Notes: generated by a model from the letters alone, not told the origin. Counted from the stretch's first letter, positions 35,558 to 44,560 are shown. The stretch is 64,000 nucleotides of DNA from Gallionellales bacterium GWA2_60_142 (GCA_001801085.1 MGWR01000070.1:36933-100932), one strand, 5' to 3'. A program made the numbers and translations.

Positions 35558-35642
35558 GGATGGAAATTCTCTCGGATTTGTTTCGTGTTGAATCGGACGG
35601 ATGCTATCAGTTTTGCTGGCCCGTGTTATTGAATGACTGCAC

Positions 35643-36068
35643 TTAGGTGACATCCCAAGGATTGAAAACCTGAGGATAAAACGCGAAATCCTGCACGTTG
35701 CGGGTGACTACGGTAAGTCCATGGCATTGCGCCGTGGCCATCAGCAAACCGTCCATCACCGGCAGCGGCTGTCCGGCCAGCTCCGCGGCTGCGGCGAGTT
35801 GCGCCCAGACATGCAGTGACGCAGCGTCCAGCGGCAGTATGCGTCCCGCAAAGCGCTGCTCCACTTTTCCCAGCCAGTCGGTGAGTTTCTGGCTGCGGCG
35901 CGGACCGTTGGCACGCAGTTTGAGTATGCCCTTTTCGATTTCGCCCAGCGTAATGACACTGATGAACAGGCTGGACTCGTCCTGCTCGTCCAGCCAGGCA
36001 ATCACCTGCGGCGCAGGCGCCTTCCGTGCGTATTCGGAAAGCACGCAGGTATCCAGCAGCCAACTCAT
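35643..36068 (-). CDS. vapC: PIN-domain toxin (VapC-like)
   Basis: MSWLLDTCVLSEYARKAPAPQVIAWLDEQ, SVITLGEIEKGI, DGLLMATAQCHGLTVVTRNVQDF: PIN acidic residues. Confidence 0.92.
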   Translation of the reverse strand: MSWLLDTCVLSEYARKAPAPQVIAWLDEQDESSLFISVITLGEIEKGILKLRANGPRRSQKLTDWLGKVEQRFAGRILPLDAASLHVWAQLAAAAELAGQPLPVMDGLLMATAQCHGLTVVTRNVQDFAFYPQVFNPWDVT

Positions 36069-36316
36069 AGCTCGACGTTGCGCCCAGTGTCGCGGCTGCG
36101 GGAAATATCCAGATCGTCGATTGCAAGATCGGGACGCAGCAGCGCGGTAGAAAGTTTGCTCTTGCGACGGGTGAGCCTCGCATATTCCTCCGCCGAAACC
36201 ACCACCGCCGTCGGCTTGCCATGCACCGTCACCACCTGCGCATCCCCGCCCGCCGCCCGTTTGACGAGCTGGCTAAAGTTACCCTTCGCCTCCTGCAATT
36301 GCCATTCGCTACGCAT
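36065..36316 (-). CDS. Phd/YefM-family antitoxin
   Basis: MRSEWQLQEAKGNFSQLVKRAAGGDAQVVTVHGKPTAVVVSAEEYARL; overlaps toxin by 4 nt (ATGA). Confidence 0.92.
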   Translation of the reverse strand: MRSEWQLQEAKGNFSQLVKRAAGGDAQVVTVHGKPTAVVVSAEEYARLTRRKSKLSTALLRPDLAIDDLDISRSRDTGRNVEL

Positions 36317-36330
36317 GACGCCCTCCTTAA

Positions 36331-36351
36331 TTCTGTCCAGTCTGGCCAGAA
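36331..36351. promoter_or_regulatory. Putative operator palindrome upstream of the toxin-antitoxin operon
   Basis: TTCTGTCCA-GTC-TGGCCAGAA inverted repeat (8 of 9 positions) immediately upstream of the AAGGAGGG ribosome-binding site of the antitoxin. Confidence 0.5.
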
Positions 36352-36568
36352 TCTAACATACCTCCGCAGGAATGGCTAGACCGCTGGTATTCATGCGGGC
36401 CCCAGGGCGATGTCACTAAAAAGCACCTATCATCAACTATCGAAAATTATCGGTTCAGGTAAAGAGGGACTTTCACTGCATGGAAGCTGCCTATTCCGCG
36501 GGTTGAGCCGAGTGATCCAATCAAACTGGGTTAATATAACCCTCAACATAAAAAATATTTCCAGCACG

Positions 36569-39500
36569 ATGCCCAGCCTCCGCAAGCTGATTGTTATTGA
36601 TTCCTATGCCGCCTCGCGCATCCGCGAGGTCCGGCTGGATGGGCATGTCCACGTATCTGGACGCAACGGCCGCGGCAAGACGACCCTCATCCGGTTGATC
36701 CCGCTTTTCTATGGCGAACAGCCTTCCCGAGTCGTGCGCTCATCCGGCAGCGTGGTTCGTTCGCTGCGCGAATTCATGTTCAGCCGCTCGACTTCCTACG
36801 TTGCCTTCGAGTACGAGAACCACGACGGCGTCAAACTCGCCGTGCTGCATTACGGCTCGGACAACAGCCCGCAATACCACTTGGCCGACGGCCCCTACAC
36901 CAAGGATATTTTCGTCGAGAATGACCAACTGATCGAAGGCCGCCACCTCAATGCCCGCCTGCGCACTCTCGGTCGCAATCCGAGCGGTGCCCTCGGCGTG
37001 CTTCAGTATCGCGCAGTCATTCAGGGAACGGCAGCCCGGCTTAATGCACCGGAGCATCGCCCGCTGGTGCGGCGCTTTGCGCTCGTGGCAACACGCTCCC
37101 GCCTGGCCGGCATCGAACGCATTAGTTCGGGCATGTTTTCCAAGGACATCACCTTCGTGGCGCTCAAACGCATGGCCGCTTCCGTTGCTCGCAACGAAGA
37201 AGACAATGAAATCGTGTTAAAGCTATCGCGCAAGGAACTGGAAGGATTCCTGCCCGACTTCAAGGCTTACCACGCCGCCATGGCGCTCGAACCGGCCTTC
37301 CAGGCCGCGAACGCCGCTTACGTTCAGGGCAATACCGCCCGCCAGCACCAGACACGCGCGGCAGGCAAGCTCAAACATCTGGTGCAGGCGCTCGGCTGGT
37401 TGCACGGAACCCTGCGCCAGAAAGCGCTCGATGCGGAAGACGCGCTTTCGGCTTTGCAACGGGAGCAGCGGGAAGCGCTGGCCGCGCTCGATCTCGAAGC
37501 GCAGACGCTGGCAGACGAAATCGCCCGGCTCGACAACGAAATCAAACTGGCGGATAGAGAAGAAAAGCAATGGAACGACAAGGACATTCATGCCTTGATC
37601 GCCCTCGTGGCTCGGCGGTCTGCGCTGGAAAAGGAAGTTGCCGACTTGCGGGAACGGCAAACGAAGCTGCTCGCCCAGGCCGATTCTGTTGATCGCAAGT
37701 ACCAAGCCCTGTTCGCCGAAGAGAAATCCCGCCGCAAACAACTCGAGGCCGACGCACAAGAACGCCTCAACACAATAACCAGTGAGTTGAACGGAGAGGC
37801 AGAGACACTTGCCGCCGACCGCGAAACCGCCATAAGCGCCCTCGATGACGCCCAGGCCACCGAAACGGATACCGCTAACGACGCGTGGCAAGCCGCGACG
37901 GCTATCGTTTCGGACATTGACCAAGCGTTAGCGCAACTGACTCCCGATGCCGAACTAGCGGGACTCGTAAGCGTCGCAAAGACCGCGCTCGAGGCCGCGT
38001 CTTCCGCGCTGCTCCAGGCGGCGACCGAAGCGGCGCATGCCCTGCTCTCCGTAGAGCAGGCAGAGAACCGCCTGACCCAGCAAGCCCAGCAAACGACGCA
38101 ACTCGCGCAGAAACATGCCCAGGCCAAGGACAGACACTCGCACCTGTTGCTGCTGGAAAACCCAAGCCACGACACCCTGCTGCACCACCTGCGCACGCAT
38201 TTGCCGGACTGGCATACCAACATTGCCAAGGTCGTGCGCGAGGACCTGTTGCTGCGCACCGATCTGTCCCCTGACAGCACCGGTCAGGGCGACGACAGCC
38301 TTTACGGCCTAGCGCTCGATCTTGCCCGCATCGAAGCGGGACGCGCCGCCAGCGAGCAATCCCTAGCAGCAGAAATCGCTCGCGCCAAGACTAACGAGGA
38401 TGAAGCACAACTTGCCTGGAAGAATGCTGAACGCGAACGGGACGCTCTCGCGAAAGCGCTGGACGCCGCACGTGACCTGCACCGCACCCGGATCGCCGAA
38501 TACAGCCGTTGCAAGAACGAACAGGAGCATTGCCGCCAAGCAGTAGGCGCAACCGAAAAAAGGCGGGACGAGGAGCTCGACCAGCGCCGCGGCCAGTTGT
38601 ACACACAACGCGCCGAAGCCGCTGTCATTGCGCTCAGCCGCAAACAGGCCATCGAGGGCTTGCGGCGTAGCCATGAGCAAGCCCGAAAGACTGTGAAGTC
38701 CGGCTTCGACCAGCGTGCTCAAGAGCTACGCAAGCGGCAGCAGGGGGCTAAGGATCGGCATACCGAAGAACTTGCACAACTCGAAGTTGCAAAATGCAAA
38801 GCTCTCGAAGGCTTGGAAAAACTTCGTTTGTCCGATCTGACCCAGGCCGGAGTGGATACGGCAGCGCTGAAAATCCTTGAAGGCGAGCTTGCCGCCGCCA
38901 AGCAAACGGCAGAAAGCGCGCAACAGGCTGCGCCTGTCGTCGAAAGTTATCAGCGCTGGCTGGTGCGGGTTCCGGTGCAGCGCGAAACGCATCGGCATCA
39001 AAGACAACAAAAAGTGGCCGAGGCCGACACGCAGGAAAGCCTGCGTAAGGAGCAAACGGCGAGATTCAAGGCACGCATCGAGAATCAGCAGACAGTGTGC
39101 GAAACAGCCAAACAGGCTGCCAACCTTGCACATCAACGCTTGGAGCAGGCAGAAACCGCGCAACAGGCCAGATTGGCGGGCATCGAAGCCGACATATCCG
39201 GCGAGGCCGTCGAAGTGGCCGTCCACTGGTTGCTGCCCGACATTCTGTCTGAACTCGATGCGGCGACCGGCCAGCTCCGCGAACAGGAGCGTTTGTTGCG
39301 CCAGCACCTCGGCACGCTGGTGAGGACTTTCCGCAAGCCGGAATATGCCGCAACCAAGGTTGGCGAATTTGCCACCAACATCGCAGACGACTATTGGTCC
39401 GAGGCATGGCGCACGTTGGACGTTTTCGGCGATTGGTACGGCGACGCCCACGCCCAGCAACGCGATGTCTTGGCAGGCTCCCTGCGCAACGGTTGCGGCA

Positions 39501-40207
39501 TCCTGCGGCGCTTCCAGGAAGGATTACTGGGCTTCCAGAGCAGCATCAACGGACTCTCGACAGAGCTCCAAAACAGCCTGGAATCGGACATGGTGTTCGA
39601 GGCGATCCGGCGGCTCTCGTTACGCCTGTCTGCACTGGTGGGGCGGCGCCCCTATTGGGACGCTCTCGTCCGCGTCCTGACGGAACATGACCGCTGGCAG
39701 GAAGCCGGGTTTGCCGGCTTGCCGGGCCATGCCCTGCTGGAAGAACTGCAGGATTTCGCCCGCCATCTTCCGGAAGGCGAGTTGGCCGAAAATCCAGAAA
39801 CTCTCATGGATCTGGAGATAGAGGTAGACGATGGCACCGAGGTCAAACGCGTCCGCAACGAGACCGACCTCAAGCAGGTATCGAGCAATGGGCTGAGCTA
39901 TCTGGTGCTGTGTCTGATCTTCGTCGCCTTCGCCAACCGCGCGCGGCGCAACAGCGAGTCAGCCGACATCTGGCTCACCTGGGCGCTCGACGAGATCGGC
40001 ACCATAGATGAAGGTAATTCCAGAGCCTTGCTGGCGATGCTTAACCGCAACCGCATCCGCCTCGTCTCGGCAAGCCCGGAGGCGAAGGAATCTTTGCAAA
40101 CCCTGTTCGATCACCGCTATGAAGTGCTCCAGGATTTCGAAATCCGCCGCATCCTCAGCGAGGACGAACTACCCGGTCTGCTTGCAGAGGTCGCCGATGA
40201 GCGCTGA
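36569..40207 (+). CDS. SMC/MukB/JetC-like coiled-coil ATPase (Wadjet/MksB-like)
   Basis: MPSLRKLIVIDSYAASRIREVRLDGHVHVSGRNGRGKTTLIRLIPLFYGEQPSRV (Walker A), about 800 aa of coiled coil, C-terminal SSNGLSYLVLCLIFVAFANR...WLTWALDEIGTIDEGN (degenerate signature and Walker B). Confidence 0.85.
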   Translation: MPSLRKLIVIDSYAASRIREVRLDGHVHVSGRNGRGKTTLIRLIPLFYGEQPSRVVRSSGSVVRSLREFMFSRSTSYVAFEYENHDGVKLAVLHYGSDNSPQYHLADGPYTKDIFVENDQLIEGRHLNARLRTLGRNPSGALGVLQYRAVIQGTAARLNAPEHRPLVRRFALVATRSRLAGIERISSGMFSKDITFVALKRMAASVARNEEDNEIVLKLSRKELEGFLPDFKAYHAAMALEPAFQAANAAYVQGNTARQHQTRAAGKLKHLVQALGWLHGTLRQKALDAEDALSALQREQREALAALDLEAQTLADEIARLDNEIKLADREEKQWNDKDIHALIALVARRSALEKEVADLRERQTKLLAQADSVDRKYQALFAEEKSRRKQLEADAQERLNTITSELNGEAETLAADRETAISALDDAQATETDTANDAWQAATAIVSDIDQALAQLTPDAELAGLVSVAKTALEAASSALLQAATEAAHALLSVEQAENRLTQQAQQTTQLAQKHAQAKDRHSHLLLLENPSHDTLLHHLRTHLPDWHTNIAKVVREDLLLRTDLSPDSTGQGDDSLYGLALDLARIEAGRAASEQSLAAEIARAKTNEDEAQLAWKNAERERDALAKALDAARDLHRTRIAEYSRCKNEQEHCRQAVGATEKRRDEELDQRRGQLYTQRAEAAVIALSRKQAIEGLRRSHEQARKTVKSGFDQRAQELRKRQQGAKDRHTEELAQLEVAKCKALEGLEKLRLSDLTQAGVDTAALKILEGELAAAKQTAESAQQAAPVVESYQRWLVRVPVQRETHRHQRQQKVAEADTQESLRKEQTARFKARIENQQTVCETAKQAANLAHQRLEQAETAQQARLAGIEADISGEAVEVAVHWLLPDILSELDAATGQLREQERLLRQHLGTLVRTFRKPEYAATKVGEFATNIADDYWSEAWRTLDVFGDWYGDAHAQQRDVLAGSLRNGCGILRRFQEGLLGFQSSINGLSTELQNSLESDMVFEAIRRLSLRLSALVGRRPYWDALVRVLTEHDRWQEAGFAGLPGHALLEELQDFARHLPEGELAENPETLMDLEIEVDDGTEVKRVRNETDLKQVSSNGLSYLVLCLIFVAFANRARRNSESADIWLTWALDEIGTIDEGNSRALLAMLNRNRIRLVSASPEAKESLQTLFDHRYEVLQDFEIRRILSEDELPGLLAEVADER

Positions 40208-40862
40208 TCGCTTTCAATCCATCGCCACCTGTTTGCTGCGCGGCGGCTTCATCAACCGTGCATCCGATCCGGAGTTGTTCGACTATCTGGAAGAGCCTGC
40301 CAATGTCGATGGCATCAACGACTTTCTCGGCCGTCTGGGGCTGCTCGCGCTGCGCACCGCGAGCGGCGAAACCTGGTTTGCCGCCCTGCGGCGGCTGGAT
40401 GACTCGAACCGCAATGCCGCGCGCGAAACCGCAGTCCAGGCCAAGCGCGAACTGCGGCACTGGGTCGGCTTCCTCAAGCTGACCATGGCGGCGCTGAGCG
40501 AGCCAGCGCCGGTAGCCGGAGCACTGCTCCACGCCCACCGCCTTAACGATGCCGTGCATGAAAATCTCAACCTGCAGGAAACTTTGCGCACGCTTTGCCA
40601 GCGGCTGCGCAGCACCCCGGATGCTTCGTTGCAAAAGATGCTCGAACTGGTCATCAACTGGGCCGTCCGCCCGGAACAAGGGCTACTGGAACTGATAGAC
40701 GAAGAAAAGGGCATCTACCGCCTGACCGGCAAGGTAGATTGGGTGCTGGACATGATCCTGTCCATCGACGAATCGCTGGAGCGTCAGACACCTTCTATCC
40801 CCCGCTCCGCCGCCAGCTCTCCCATGCCGCCAAGCACATCTCCGGATGCGCCCGATGCGTGA
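40197..40862 (+). CDS. MukE/MksE/JetB-like condensin accessory protein
   Basis: MSADRFQSIATCLLRGGFINRASDPELFDYLEEP; position and size between the SMC and kleisin-like genes; ATG overlaps the preceding stop. Confidence 0.72.
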   Translation: MSADRFQSIATCLLRGGFINRASDPELFDYLEEPANVDGINDFLGRLGLLALRTASGETWFAALRRLDDSNRNAARETAVQAKRELRHWVGFLKLTMAALSEPAPVAGALLHAHRLNDAVHENLNLQETLRTLCQRLRSTPDASLQKMLELVINWAVRPEQGLLELIDEEKGIYRLTGKVDWVLDMILSIDESLERQTPSIPRSAASSPMPPSTSPDAPDA

Positions 40863-42129
40863 GCACATTCTCAACGTCATCCAGGCGCTGCACCAGAACC
40901 GCGAACTGATCGCCGATGCCTATTGCCGTGGGCAAGGCGTCGCCCCGGAGAAGGAAACCGAAGCGGCCTTCACTCGCCTGCTCAAGGTGAAAGCGCTGGC
41001 GCCCTACATCGAGGGCAGCTTCCGCTTGGATCGGCGCCTACGCGTGTTTTTCGACCGCGCGGTGAATCGCGTCAAAATTTACGGCAACTCCACCCATTAC
41101 GCCCATGTCGTCGGCAAGCTGGAGGGCATGCTGGAAGCCTATCAAGGTGCAATGATCGCCGCCGATGCGCAAAGCCAGGAGGAATGCATAGACGAGATCA
41201 TCGACCTGTGCGACGAATTCGCCACCGGCATGAAAGAGGACATCGAGCATTTCCGCATGGTGGTCGACACCCGCAAAGGTTTCTCGGGTGGCGCTCTCAA
41301 GGACAGGCTGTTCCACAATAGGAACTACGTTGCACAAGCCTCCCAGATGGTAGAGGCAGTTGGGTTGCTCGACCAAGCAGACTTGCTGGATGCCATCCGG
41401 GGCTTCATGGAGCTCACCAATGTTCTCCAGCGGCATCTGTACAACCGCGTCGAAGGCAGCGACGATCTGCGCCGCCGCCTGTTCGAGGTCCAACAGGCAC
41501 TGAACGCCGCGCTGTTCGATCTCCAGGCCGCGCATCATCTGGTGGAAGTGCTGCTCCGTCTCGACGACCGCCTTGTGCGCCAAGCAGATTTCGAGCCACC
41601 GGTCTGGGAGGATGACGGCAACCTGCCCGACATGCTGTTCCGTTTTCCAGGTTTCCCGCTGCCAAGCTATCCCGATCCGAACGGCGACGACAGCGGCGCA
41701 CTGCTGTCGCTGCTGATGGAAATCCGCGACGACCGGCGTCCGTCCGCCCGCCCCACAGCACCGCGCGCTGGTTGCCTCGATGACGCTGGCGAACCGCCTC
41801 CCTCCAAACCCAGCCCGAGCGAATTCCGCCGCGCCTTGAATTTGCTGCTCGCCGAGATCGACCATCATGCCGTAGCGATTTCGGTGATGATCTGGCTACG
41901 CACCCACCGAGAGCGTGAAACGCTTTATCCCTACTCGCCGGTAATCTGGTTGGGCACGCTCTCGTGCGCCATCGACAACGGGCTAACGGCACCGGACGGC
42001 TGGCGCTATCGGCACCAAGTGGCCGCTCCCGACCTACGCTGGGAAACCCCAGTGCTCACCGACATCTGGCTGGAACTCCATGCTGCCGATACAACACATC
42101 CAAGCGTTGCTGCGCGCGTGCCAGTCTGA
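40855..42129 (+). CDS. MukF/MksF/JetA-like kleisin
   Basis: MREHILNVIQALHQNRELIADAYCRGQG; helical sequence with central acidic linker; overlaps the preceding stop. Confidence 0.7.
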   Translation: MREHILNVIQALHQNRELIADAYCRGQGVAPEKETEAAFTRLLKVKALAPYIEGSFRLDRRLRVFFDRAVNRVKIYGNSTHYAHVVGKLEGMLEAYQGAMIAADAQSQEECIDEIIDLCDEFATGMKEDIEHFRMVVDTRKGFSGGALKDRLFHNRNYVAQASQMVEAVGLLDQADLLDAIRGFMELTNVLQRHLYNRVEGSDDLRRRLFEVQQALNAALFDLQAAHHLVEVLLRLDDRLVRQADFEPPVWEDDGNLPDMLFRFPGFPLPSYPDPNGDDSGALLSLLMEIRDDRRPSARPTAPRAGCLDDAGEPPPSKPSPSEFRRALNLLLAEIDHHAVAISVMIWLRTHRERETLYPYSPVIWLGTLSCAIDNGLTAPDGWRYRHQVAAPDLRWETPVLTDIWLELHAADTTHPSVAARVPV

Positions 42130-42913
42130 CAATGGTCGCCGCCCCGCCAGCAAGGCGGCGCAGGCGCTCGCCGACTCATTGGGGTTTGGGCGCATCGTTG
42201 GCAAGCAATGGCTGGTTTCGGATCACGACCGGGAGAGAATCCGCGTCTATCTGCAACAGGTAGAGGGCATTGACCCCGCCACGCCGCCCGATGCGTGGAG
42301 CGAACGCACCCGCATCGGCGCCGCCGAGCTGGGACGGAACGAGAAACTGGCGGGACGACGGCCACGCGAAGACCGGCTTGCCCTGCGCGGGCCAACCGGA
42401 TTACGCCTAGGCGAGACGCTGCTTCCCCTTCCCGGACAAGCCTTCCTCGACATTCCATTGGCAGATGCGGCCTGCCTTCGTTATGACTGCGCTGTCGTGG
42501 TGGAAAACTTTGAAGCGTTCATACACTATGAGAACGCAGCAATCGAGTTGCCGTTTCCGCAACCGCTCATCATTTTTCGCGGAGACAGTGTCAATACGAC
42601 TGACACGGTGCTCAAGTTCCTGCATGCCGGCAAAGCGCCGGTCATTGCGTGGCCGGATATGGATGCCGCAGGCCTGCTGTATGCGTCGAGCCTGCCGCGC
42701 TTAGCCGGAATCATCGGGCCGAAGAAGCCGCAAGAATGTCTCTCCTTCTATGGGAGGGACGATCTTTACCTCGGACAGCTACGGGAGCTCGATGCTCTGC
42801 ATCTATCGGGAAAGAGCATCGCTTTGGAGGATTCGGTTCGAAAAAACAGGAAGGGGCTCGATCAGGAACGGATGATCTCGGCTGCAATTCCGCTCATCCT
42901 CTGGACGACATAA
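42080..42913 (+). CDS. TOPRIM-domain protein, JetD/MksG-like putative nuclease
   Basis: CAVVVENFEAF (TOPRIM Glu, codon at 42503) and APVIAWPDMDAAGLLYA (DxD, codons from 42656); translationally overlapping last gene of the SMC operon. Confidence 0.75.
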   Translation: MLPIQHIQALLRACQSDNGRRPASKAAQALADSLGFGRIVGKQWLVSDHDRERIRVYLQQVEGIDPATPPDAWSERTRIGAAELGRNEKLAGRRPREDRLALRGPTGLRLGETLLPLPGQAFLDIPLADAACLRYDCAVVVENFEAFIHYENAAIELPFPQPLIIFRGDSVNTTDTVLKFLHAGKAPVIAWPDMDAAGLLYASSLPRLAGIIGPKKPQECLSFYGRDDLYLGQLRELDALHLSGKSIALEDSVRKNRKGLDQERMISAAIPLILWTT

Positions 42914-42979
42914 TCTACTTCAGATATGGCACTACGAAAATAAGCTGCGCCTTTTCCTCTGCTCGCAATTAGGTTTCTG

Positions 42980-44560
42980 TCACTCCCATTCGATCGTCGC
43001 TGGCGGCTTGCCCGAAATGTCGTACACCACGCGGTTGATGCCGCGCACTTCGTTGATGATGCGGTTGGACACCTTGCCCAGCAGCTCGTACGGCAGATGC
43101 GCCCAGTGCGCGGTCATGAAGTCCTGCGTCTGCACCGCACGCAAGGACACCACCCATTCGTAGGTGCGGCCGTCGCCCATCACGCCGACGCTCTTGACCG
43201 GCAGGAACACCGTGAAGGCTTGACTGGTCAGTTCATACCAGGTCTTGCCGCTGGCATCCTTCGTGTTGCGCAGTTCTTCGATGAAGATCGCATCGGCGCG
43301 GCGCAGCAACTCCGCGTATTCGCGTTTCACTTCGCCGAGGATGCGCACGCCTAGGCCGGGGCCGGGGAACGGGTGGCGGTACACCATGTCCGCAGGCAGA
43401 CCCAGCGCCACGCCCAGTTCGCGGACTTCGTCCTTGAACAACTCGCGCAGCGGCTCCAGCAGCTTCAGGTGCATGGACTCGGGCAGGCCGCCGACGTTGT
43501 GGTGCGACTTGATCGTGTGCGCCTTCTTGGTCTTGGAACCGGCCGATTCGATCACGTCCGGGTAGATCGTGCCCTGCGCCAGCCACTTGGCCTGCTGCAG
43601 CTTCGCGGACTCGCGCTGGAACACTTCGACGAACTCGCGGCCGATGATCTTGCGCTTCTGCTCAGGGTCGGAAACGCCGGTCAGGTGCTTCATGAACTCG
43701 TCGCTGGCATCGACATGGATCACCTTCATGTGCAAGTGGTTGCCGAAGGTCTCCATCACCTGCTCGCCCTCGTGCAGACGCAACAGGCCGTTGTCCACGA
43801 ACACGCAGATCAACTGGTCGCCGATGGCTCTGTGGATCAGCGCCGCCGCGACAGACGAATCCACGCCGCCGGACAGACCGAGGATGACTTCTTCGTCGCC
43901 GACCTGCGCCTTGATCTTCGCCACCGCCTCGGCGATGTAGTCCGGCATGTTCCAGTCCTGTCCGCAGCCGCAGATGTCGTGTACGAAGCGGCCGATGATC
44001 GCCTTGCCCTGATGGGTGTGGGTCACTTCCGGATGGAACTGCACCGCGTAGTAGCGGCGCGATTCGTCCGCCATCGCGGCGAACGGCGTCGCCTCGTTGG
44101 AGGCGATCACCGAGAAGCCGGGCGGAATCGCAGTAACCTTGTCGCCGTGGCTCATCCACACATCCAGCAGGCCATGGCCTTGCGCGTTGGTCTTGTCCTG
44201 GATGCCGTCGAACAGCTTCGAGTGTCCCTGCGCGCGGATCTCGGCATAGCCGAATTCGCGCACATGGCCGCTCTCGACCTTGCCGCCGAGCTGCGCCGCC
44301 ATGGTCTGCATGCCGTAACAAATGCCGAACACCGGCACGCCGAGATCGAACACGACCTGCGGCGCCTTGGGCGTCTCGTCTTCGTACACCGAGTTGGGCC
44401 CGCCGGACAGGATGATGCCCGCCGGGTTGAACGCGCGGATGTCCGCTTCGCTCATGTCCCAGGGATGCAGTTCGCAATAGACATGCGTCTCGCGCACGCG
44501 GCGTGCAATCAGTTGGGTGTACTGGGAACCGAAGTCGAGGATGAGGATTTTTTTGTGCAT
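42980..44560 (-). CDS. guaA: GMP synthase (glutamine-hydrolysing)
   Basis: [54 protein letters not shown]-terminal KPPATIEWE. Confidence 0.98.

What the first reader, a model, noticed from the sequence alone, without database searches (positions are those of the whole stretch)
36569..42913. Four-gene SMC-kleisin-TOPRIM operon: candidate divergent Wadjet/MksBEFG plasmid-defence system with non-canonical gene order
Seen: four genes overlap translationally (SMC stop 40207 / next ATG 40197; stop 40862 / next ATG 40855; stop 42129 / next ATG 42080). The first is an about 1210-aa coiled-coil ATPase with Walker A GRNGRGKTTLIRL and Walker B WALDEIGTID. The last has TOPRIM-like E (VVVENFEAF) and DxD (AWPDMDAAG). 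Established: Wadjet (JetABCD/MksFEBG) is a MukBEF-like condensin plus TOPRIM nuclease that cleaves circular plasmid DNA, usually encoded kleisin-E-SMC-nuclease (A-B-C-D). Inference: here the order is SMC-E-kleisin-TOPRIM, and the TOPRIM protein (277 aa) looks shorter than typical JetD, suggesting a divergent subtype.
Basis: partly seen in the sequence, partly recalled or inferred. Interest (0 to 1): 0.85.

Follow-up and report, generated by a model that had tools for sequence, protein, structure and literature searches.

The report
Uncatalogued Wadjet-like SMC plasmid-defence operon
Four overlapping genes in an iron-oxidising bacterium (Gallionella group) encode a DNA-loop-extruding SMC machine plus a DNA-cutting subunit, resembling the Wadjet anti-plasmid system but belonging to a separate branch, with its own fixed gene order, that current defence-gene catalogues miss.

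Summary
The operon is real and intact at the stated coordinates: SMC (36569-40207, 1212 aa), KITE/MksE-like E (40197-40862), kleisin-like F (40855-42129) and TOPRIM G (42080-42913). Walker A/B and TOPRIM E142/D193/D195 are present and invariant in homologues. F models as a MukF/JetA-type kleisin. G models (pLDDT 94.8) as Topo VI-A/MksG. So it is built like Wadjet (JetABCD/MksFEBG).

It is not Wadjet type I or II by profile, domain or tree, and no type III model matched it. The SMC is Pfam DUF3584 and the nuclease DUF7281, and PADLOC gives no Wadjet call. The order SMC-E-F-G is not a local oddity: all 45 complete operons among 62 loci (window plus 61), mainly Beta/Gammaproteobacteria, share it.

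Defence is supported by context. The operon plus a vapBC-like pair fills a 7.4-kb insert between rlmJ and guaA that is absent in the nearest relative, and a congener carries a complete canonical Wadjet I on the same side of guaA. Other copies sit beside BREX, on plasmids and in one phage record. One subclade has repeatedly lost the nuclease, as MukBEF did.

Plasmid cleavage is inferred, not shown. The clade may already sit unnamed in a 2025 'Wadjet group' dataset I could not open.

The parts
36569..40207 (+). SMC ATPase (MksB/JetC-like), 1212 aa, DUF3584; Walker A GRNGRGKT, signature SSNGLSYL, Walker B WALDEI
   Evidence: PF12128 475 bits; motifs conserved in 57/57 homologues; head-domain tree
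40197..40862 (+). KITE subunit (MksE/JetB-like), 221 aa
   Evidence: PF21980 MksE 29 bits, cut-off 27; 33/35 homologues hit MksE and 17/35 hit DUF4194, the JetB domain
40855..42129 (+). kleisin subunit (MksF/JetA-like), 424 aa, N- and C-terminal winged-helix-like regions joined by helices
   Evidence: AlphaFold model pLDDT 76.9; top 10 Foldseek PDB hits all MukF or JetA, including Wadjet-II 9qe0
42080..42913 (+). short TOPRIM nuclease subunit (MksG/JetD-like), 277 aa, DUF7281; E142, D193, D195, R167-G168, E263 conserved
   Evidence: PF23947 67.5 bits; model pLDDT 94.8; Foldseek Topo VI-A 1d3y and MksG 8b7f, probability 1.00; invariant residues
35643..36068 (-). PIN-domain (VapC-like) toxin, probable companion of the insert
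   Evidence: ORF; class assigned by eye from sequence, no profile run
36065..36316 (-). Phd/YefM-like antitoxin, 83 aa, overlapping vapC
   Evidence: translation; class assigned by eye
35617..42983 (.). accessory insert (TA pair + four-gene operon) between rlmJ and guaA; the same interval is 92 bp in the nearest relative L160
   Evidence: flank alignments 93.8% and 91.3% identical and adjacent in L160

Best explanation
A four-subunit SMC restriction complex that works like Wadjet/MksBEFG. An SMC dimer, with kleisin F and KITE E, loads on DNA and extrudes loops using ATP. When the extruded DNA is a small closed circle, the topological end state activates the TOPRIM nuclease G, which cuts the circle, so plasmids (perhaps circular phage genomes) are restricted. 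Shown here: intact genes, subunit identities by family or fold, conserved ATPase and TOPRIM residues, fixed operon order, accessory insertion in a spot where a congener carries canonical Wadjet I. Inferred: complex formation, loop extrusion, circle sensing, cleavage. By family it is a separate DUF3584/DUF7281 branch of the Wadjet/Mks group, outside types I and II and not matched by type III models.
For: Families. Kleisin fold. Topo VI-A/MksG fold and invariant TOPRIM residues. Fixed SMC-E-F-G order in 45/45 complete operons with overlapping or near-overlapping genes. Accessory: 3 of 37 genomes of the genus; insert absent in nearest relative. A congener (L163/G310) carries complete type I JetABCD beside guaA. 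BREX pglZ directly upstream in L048; neighbours of other loci include GajA, pAgo, BREX and type I methylase hits. Plasmid carriage. Smc in 38 of 41 genomes of the genus and ScpA in the window's own genome.
Against: No functional data. F shows no sequence-level similarity to JetA (hhalign probability 0.5%) and rests on fold alone, with low global TM scores from a flexible model. G lacks the JetD N-terminal domain, so its activation could differ. One subclade lacks G. One search has no matched control set, so neighbourhood enrichment is suggestive only.
Confidence: 0.78

Rival explanations
1. A chromosome-organising condensin (MksBEF-like) in which the TOPRIM protein is a regulator or decatenating helper rather than a defence nuclease.
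For: The DUF3584 family includes nuclease-free SMC-E-F loci in a slowly evolving subclade, about 35-75% SMC identity across families. The window's own assembly shows no Smc, and carrier G313, 99% complete, shows neither Smc nor ScpA.
Against: Present in only 3 of 37 genomes of the genus. Nearly all congeners have Smc, including carrier G311, and the window's genome has ScpA and is only 80.5% complete. The window copy is a divergent, G-bearing branch away from the nuclease-free subclade. It sits in an insertion beside a TA pair. TOPRIM residues are fully conserved.
Confidence: 0.1
2. An anti-phage (linear or replicating phage DNA) system rather than anti-plasmid, of the Lamassu/OLD-like SMC plus nuclease kind.
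For: Weak PADLOC matches of some family members to LmuB and ATPase-Toprim models. Adjacent to known anti-phage systems in several loci.
Against: Lamassu has no MukE/MukF-type pair; this operon has E and F subunits of MksE and kleisin type. The nuclease matches Topo VI-A/MksG, not an OLD-family or Lamassu effector.
Confidence: 0.08
3. An already described Wadjet type (I, II or III) with shuffled genes.
For: G members give weak JetD1/JetD2/JetD3 hits (best 7.1e-08). PADLOC labels JetC models 'DUF3584; MukB-like'.
Against: The window SMC gives no JetC hit in PADLOC. PF12128 does not hit reference JetC1, JetC2 or MukB, which hit PF13558 instead. Type I and II reference operons are all A-B-C-D. DUF3584 heads form their own clade, support 100, branch 0.99.
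Confidence: 0.04

Closest known systems
Wadjet type I / MksBEFG (JetABCD; C. glutamicum, P. aeruginosa PA14)
   Same: Same four subunit classes (SMC, KITE, kleisin, CAP-TOPRIM nuclease). G model matches MksG 8b7f with probability 1.00. Some E homologues hit the JetB domain DUF4194. A congener carries type I beside the same gene, guaA.
   Different: Order SMC-E-F-G instead of F-E-SMC-G. SMC is DUF3584, not PF13558/AAA_29. G is 277 aa (DUF7281) without DUF3322 (JetD1 391-402 aa). No type I profile call.
Wadjet type II (reference locus L121; solved JetABC of Neobacillus vireti, 9qe0)
   Same: Same subunit logic; the F model resembles the type II JetA chain (9qe0_E, probability 0.90).
   Different: Type II subunits carry DUF2397, DUF2398, a 1392-aa JetC and DUF3323-DUF2399 JetD in order A-B-C-D; none of these domains is found here.
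MksBEF / MukBEF chromosomal condensins
   Same: E is an MksE (PF21980). F's best fold matches are MukF. The family contains nuclease-free members.
   Different: This operon carries the nuclease, has a shorter SMC (1212 vs about 1480 aa in MukB) and is accessory.
Topoisomerase VI subunit A / Spo11
   Same: Winged-helix plus TOPRIM fold with E and DxD.
   Different: No ATPase B subunit in the operon; no invariant tyrosine in the N-terminal region (best column 24 of 35).

Membership tests
Wadjet/MksBEFG group (broad sense) | SMC ATPase with MukB-like role and intact ATPase motifs | tested here: met
   PF12128 475 bits; Walker A, signature and Walker B
Wadjet/MksBEFG group (broad sense) | KITE (MukE/JetB) subunit | tested here: met
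   PF21980 above cut-off; 33/35 homologues
Wadjet/MksBEFG group (broad sense) | kleisin (MukF/JetA) subunit | tested here: met
   fold only: Foldseek top hits MukF/JetA; not by sequence
Wadjet/MksBEFG group (broad sense) | CAP-TOPRIM nuclease in the same operon with E and DxD | tested here: met
Wadjet/MksBEFG group (broad sense) | restricts or cleaves closed-circular plasmid DNA | not testable with these tools
   needs transformation or cleavage assay
Wadjet type I | JetA1/B1/C1/D1 profiles, DUF3322+JetD_C nuclease, order A-B-C-D | tested here: not met
   no JetA/B/C hit, JetD1 only 0.0078; order SMC-E-F-G; no DUF3322
Wadjet type II | JetA2/B2/C2/D2 profiles (DUF2397/2398/2399) | tested here: not met
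   no hit for any of the four window proteins; reference L121 differs in every domain
Wadjet type III | JetA3/B3/C3/D3 profiles | tested here: inconclusive
   no hit in the window, but a few G homologues hit JetD3 weakly and no type III reference locus was found for the tree
Lamassu | LmuB SMC with LmuA effector and LmuC, no MukE/MukF pair | tested here: not met
   operon has MksE and kleisin subunits and a Topo VI-A-like nuclease
MksBEF/MukBEF chromosomal condensin | no nuclease, housekeeping distribution | tested here: not met
   nuclease present; 3 of 37 genomes in genus; insertion

The most novel reading that the evidence does not exclude
The DUF3584 SMC-E-F-G operons are a further major Wadjet type, with a minimal nuclease lacking the JetD N-terminal domain, and a second, independent instance (besides MukBEF) of a nuclease-armed plasmid-cutting SMC complex turning into a nuclease-free, probably chromosome-organising condensin, since nuclease-free members are nested inside the armed clade.
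Probability: 0.4. Interest if true: 0.8.

Novelty: new variant of a known kind. Interest (0 to 1): 0.62.

Why it matters
Annotation pipelines label these operons 'ATP-binding protein' plus three 'hypothetical proteins', and PADLOC does not call them, so a Wadjet-like defence present in several per cent of sampled Pseudomonadota genomes (22 of 399 by its SMC, nuclease-free forms included) goes uncounted. The short nuclease offers a minimal model for how an SMC motor switches a TOPRIM nuclease on. The family holds armed and unarmed members at about 45% SMC identity (for example L203 and L204, 46.7%), close enough to test directly how a plasmid-cutting SMC becomes a condensin.

Tried and rejected
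Sequence-only profile comparison of F with JetA1 (hhalign probability 0.5%) and of E with JetB1 (7.5%) failed with three-sequence reference alignments, so F was settled by structure and E by Pfam. PDB profile searches gave nothing useful for E or F and only Topo VI-A for G. JetC3 reference loci were not found in 200 genomes. Scans of viral contigs with G and SMC alignments found no confirmed relatives, although a GenBank phage record has one. No direct repeats mark the insert ends and no integrase gene was seen in it, so its mobilisation route is unknown. Base composition does not stand out (insert 60.3% GC, flanks about 63%). Literature searches for DUF7281 found no paper and for DUF3584 only incidental mentions; Petrushenko 2011 is not held.

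Full report
Observation. SMC 36569-40207, E 40197-40862, F 40855-42129 and G 42080-42913 overlap by 11, 8 and 50 bases. The quoted Walker and TOPRIM motifs are in the translations.

Subunits. The SMC matches Pfam DUF3584 at 475 bits and E passes the MksE cut-off; G matches DUF7281, and JetD_C only at E = 0.06. F has no Pfam match. With 35 homologues aligned, 33 E proteins hit MksE and 17 also hit DUF4194, the domain of type I JetB. The AlphaFold model of F has winged-helix-like regions at both ends joined by helices, and its ten best PDB matches are all MukF or JetA chains, including the type II JetA of Neobacillus vireti. Global TM scores are low because the model is flexible. The model of G is very confident (pLDDT 94.8) and matches Topo VI-A and the C. 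glutamicum MksG nuclease with probability 1.00. In all 35 G homologues E142, N143, R167, G168, D193, D195 and E263 are invariant. G lacks the N-terminal DUF3322/DUF3323 domain of JetD, which explains its short length.

A conserved system. A scan of 85,488 species genomes with an SMC alignment returned 61 loci, nearly all Beta- and Gammaproteobacteria. Of these plus the window, 45 are complete by length criteria, and all 45 have the order SMC-E-F-G, mostly with stop-start overlaps. No locus in this set had another order. Protein identities to the window are often only 15-35%, so the order is old.

Not a listed Wadjet type. PADLOC gives no Wadjet call for the window: nothing for SMC beyond weak generic ATPase hits, nothing for E or F, and JetD1 at 0.0078 for G. 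Reference operons of type I (L123, L129, L163) and type II (L121) were fetched; all have order A-B-C-D and their own domains. PF12128 does not hit the JetC or MukB references tested. In a tree of head domains the DUF3584 proteins separate from JetC1, JetC2, MukB and a short-SMC group with support 100 and a branch of 0.99. The reference set is small and lacks type III, so rank and exact sister group are provisional.

Accessory and defence context. Only 3 of 37 genomes of the genus carry it. The genus is Gallionella-like, judged from the public names of two congeners. In the nearest relative (L160) rlmJ and guaA are neighbours; the window differs by an insert at 35617-42983 holding a VapC/Phd-like pair and the operon. 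On the same side of guaA, congener G310 (L163) carries a complete canonical Wadjet I (JetA1 570, JetB1 271, JetC1 1193 and JetD1 463 bits), and G298 (L165) carries a MADS-like gene. A guaA-flanked island is also the most diverse defence island in Stenotrophomonas maltophilia (PMC11680222). Elsewhere the operon lies directly beside BREX pglZ (L048), and neighbours of sampled loci include GajA, pAgo, other BREX genes and type I methylases (no control set). It is on plasmids, for example Aromatoleum EbN1 plasmid 1, annotated as an ATP-binding protein and three hypothetical proteins, and complete in a 209-kb record deposited as Dolichospermum phage Dfl-JY45.

Armed and unarmed members. The highest-scoring DUF3584 proteins belong to a slowly evolving subclade in which some loci have G (L196, L197, L204, L206) and others do not (L198-L201, L203, L207), with no remnant detected. 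The nuclease-free forms are nested in at least three places, and the phage copy is sister to the subclade. This resembles MukBEF, a Wadjet-group member without the nuclease (PMC7617805). So family membership alone does not prove defence. The window copy is G-bearing, divergent, accessory and island-borne.

Mechanism. From the anatomy and the known behaviour of JetABCD/MksBEFG (PMC10586767, PMC10123090), the most likely action is ATP-driven loop extrusion on incoming DNA, sensing of a small closed circle, and cleavage by G. Subunit identities and catalytic residues are shown; assembly, extrusion, sensing and cutting are inferred. A chromosomal role is less likely because Smc is found in 38 of 41 genomes of the genus and ScpA in the window's own 80.5%-complete assembly.

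Novelty. No paper in the library describes the DUF3584/DUF7281 operon. The large Wadjet-group search of 2025 (PMC7617805) may include it without naming it; its data file was not readable here. I therefore call it a new variant of a known kind.

Noticed in passing
L198, L199, L200, L201, L203, L207 (SMC-E-F loci): Nuclease-free SMC-E-F operons nested among nuclease-bearing ones; possible independent change from plasmid defence to condensin.
   Followed up: partly
L181 6974-13329 (PP438435.1 86907-93262): Complete SMC-E-F-G operon in a 209-kb record deposited as Dolichospermum phage Dfl-JY45; a phage carrying an anti-plasmid-type system. Phage nature of the record was not independently proven.
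   Followed up: partly
L026 1174-6567 and L027 6618-12155: Four-gene relatives with a short SMC (936-956 aa) and weak DUF7281-like TOPRIM, apparently in orders F-E-SMC-G and G-SMC-F-E; further short-SMC relatives in L023 and L024. Another uncalled branch.
   Followed up: partly
L163, L165, L160 (side of guaA facing the window insert): Variable defence spot beside guaA in this genus: Wadjet I, MADS-like gene, or empty.
   Followed up: partly
G313 (L018): Carrier genome, 99% complete, with no detectable Smc or ScpA.
   Followed up: partly
window 35643-36316: VapC/Phd-like toxin-antitoxin pair inside the same insert, divergent from the operon.
   Followed up: no
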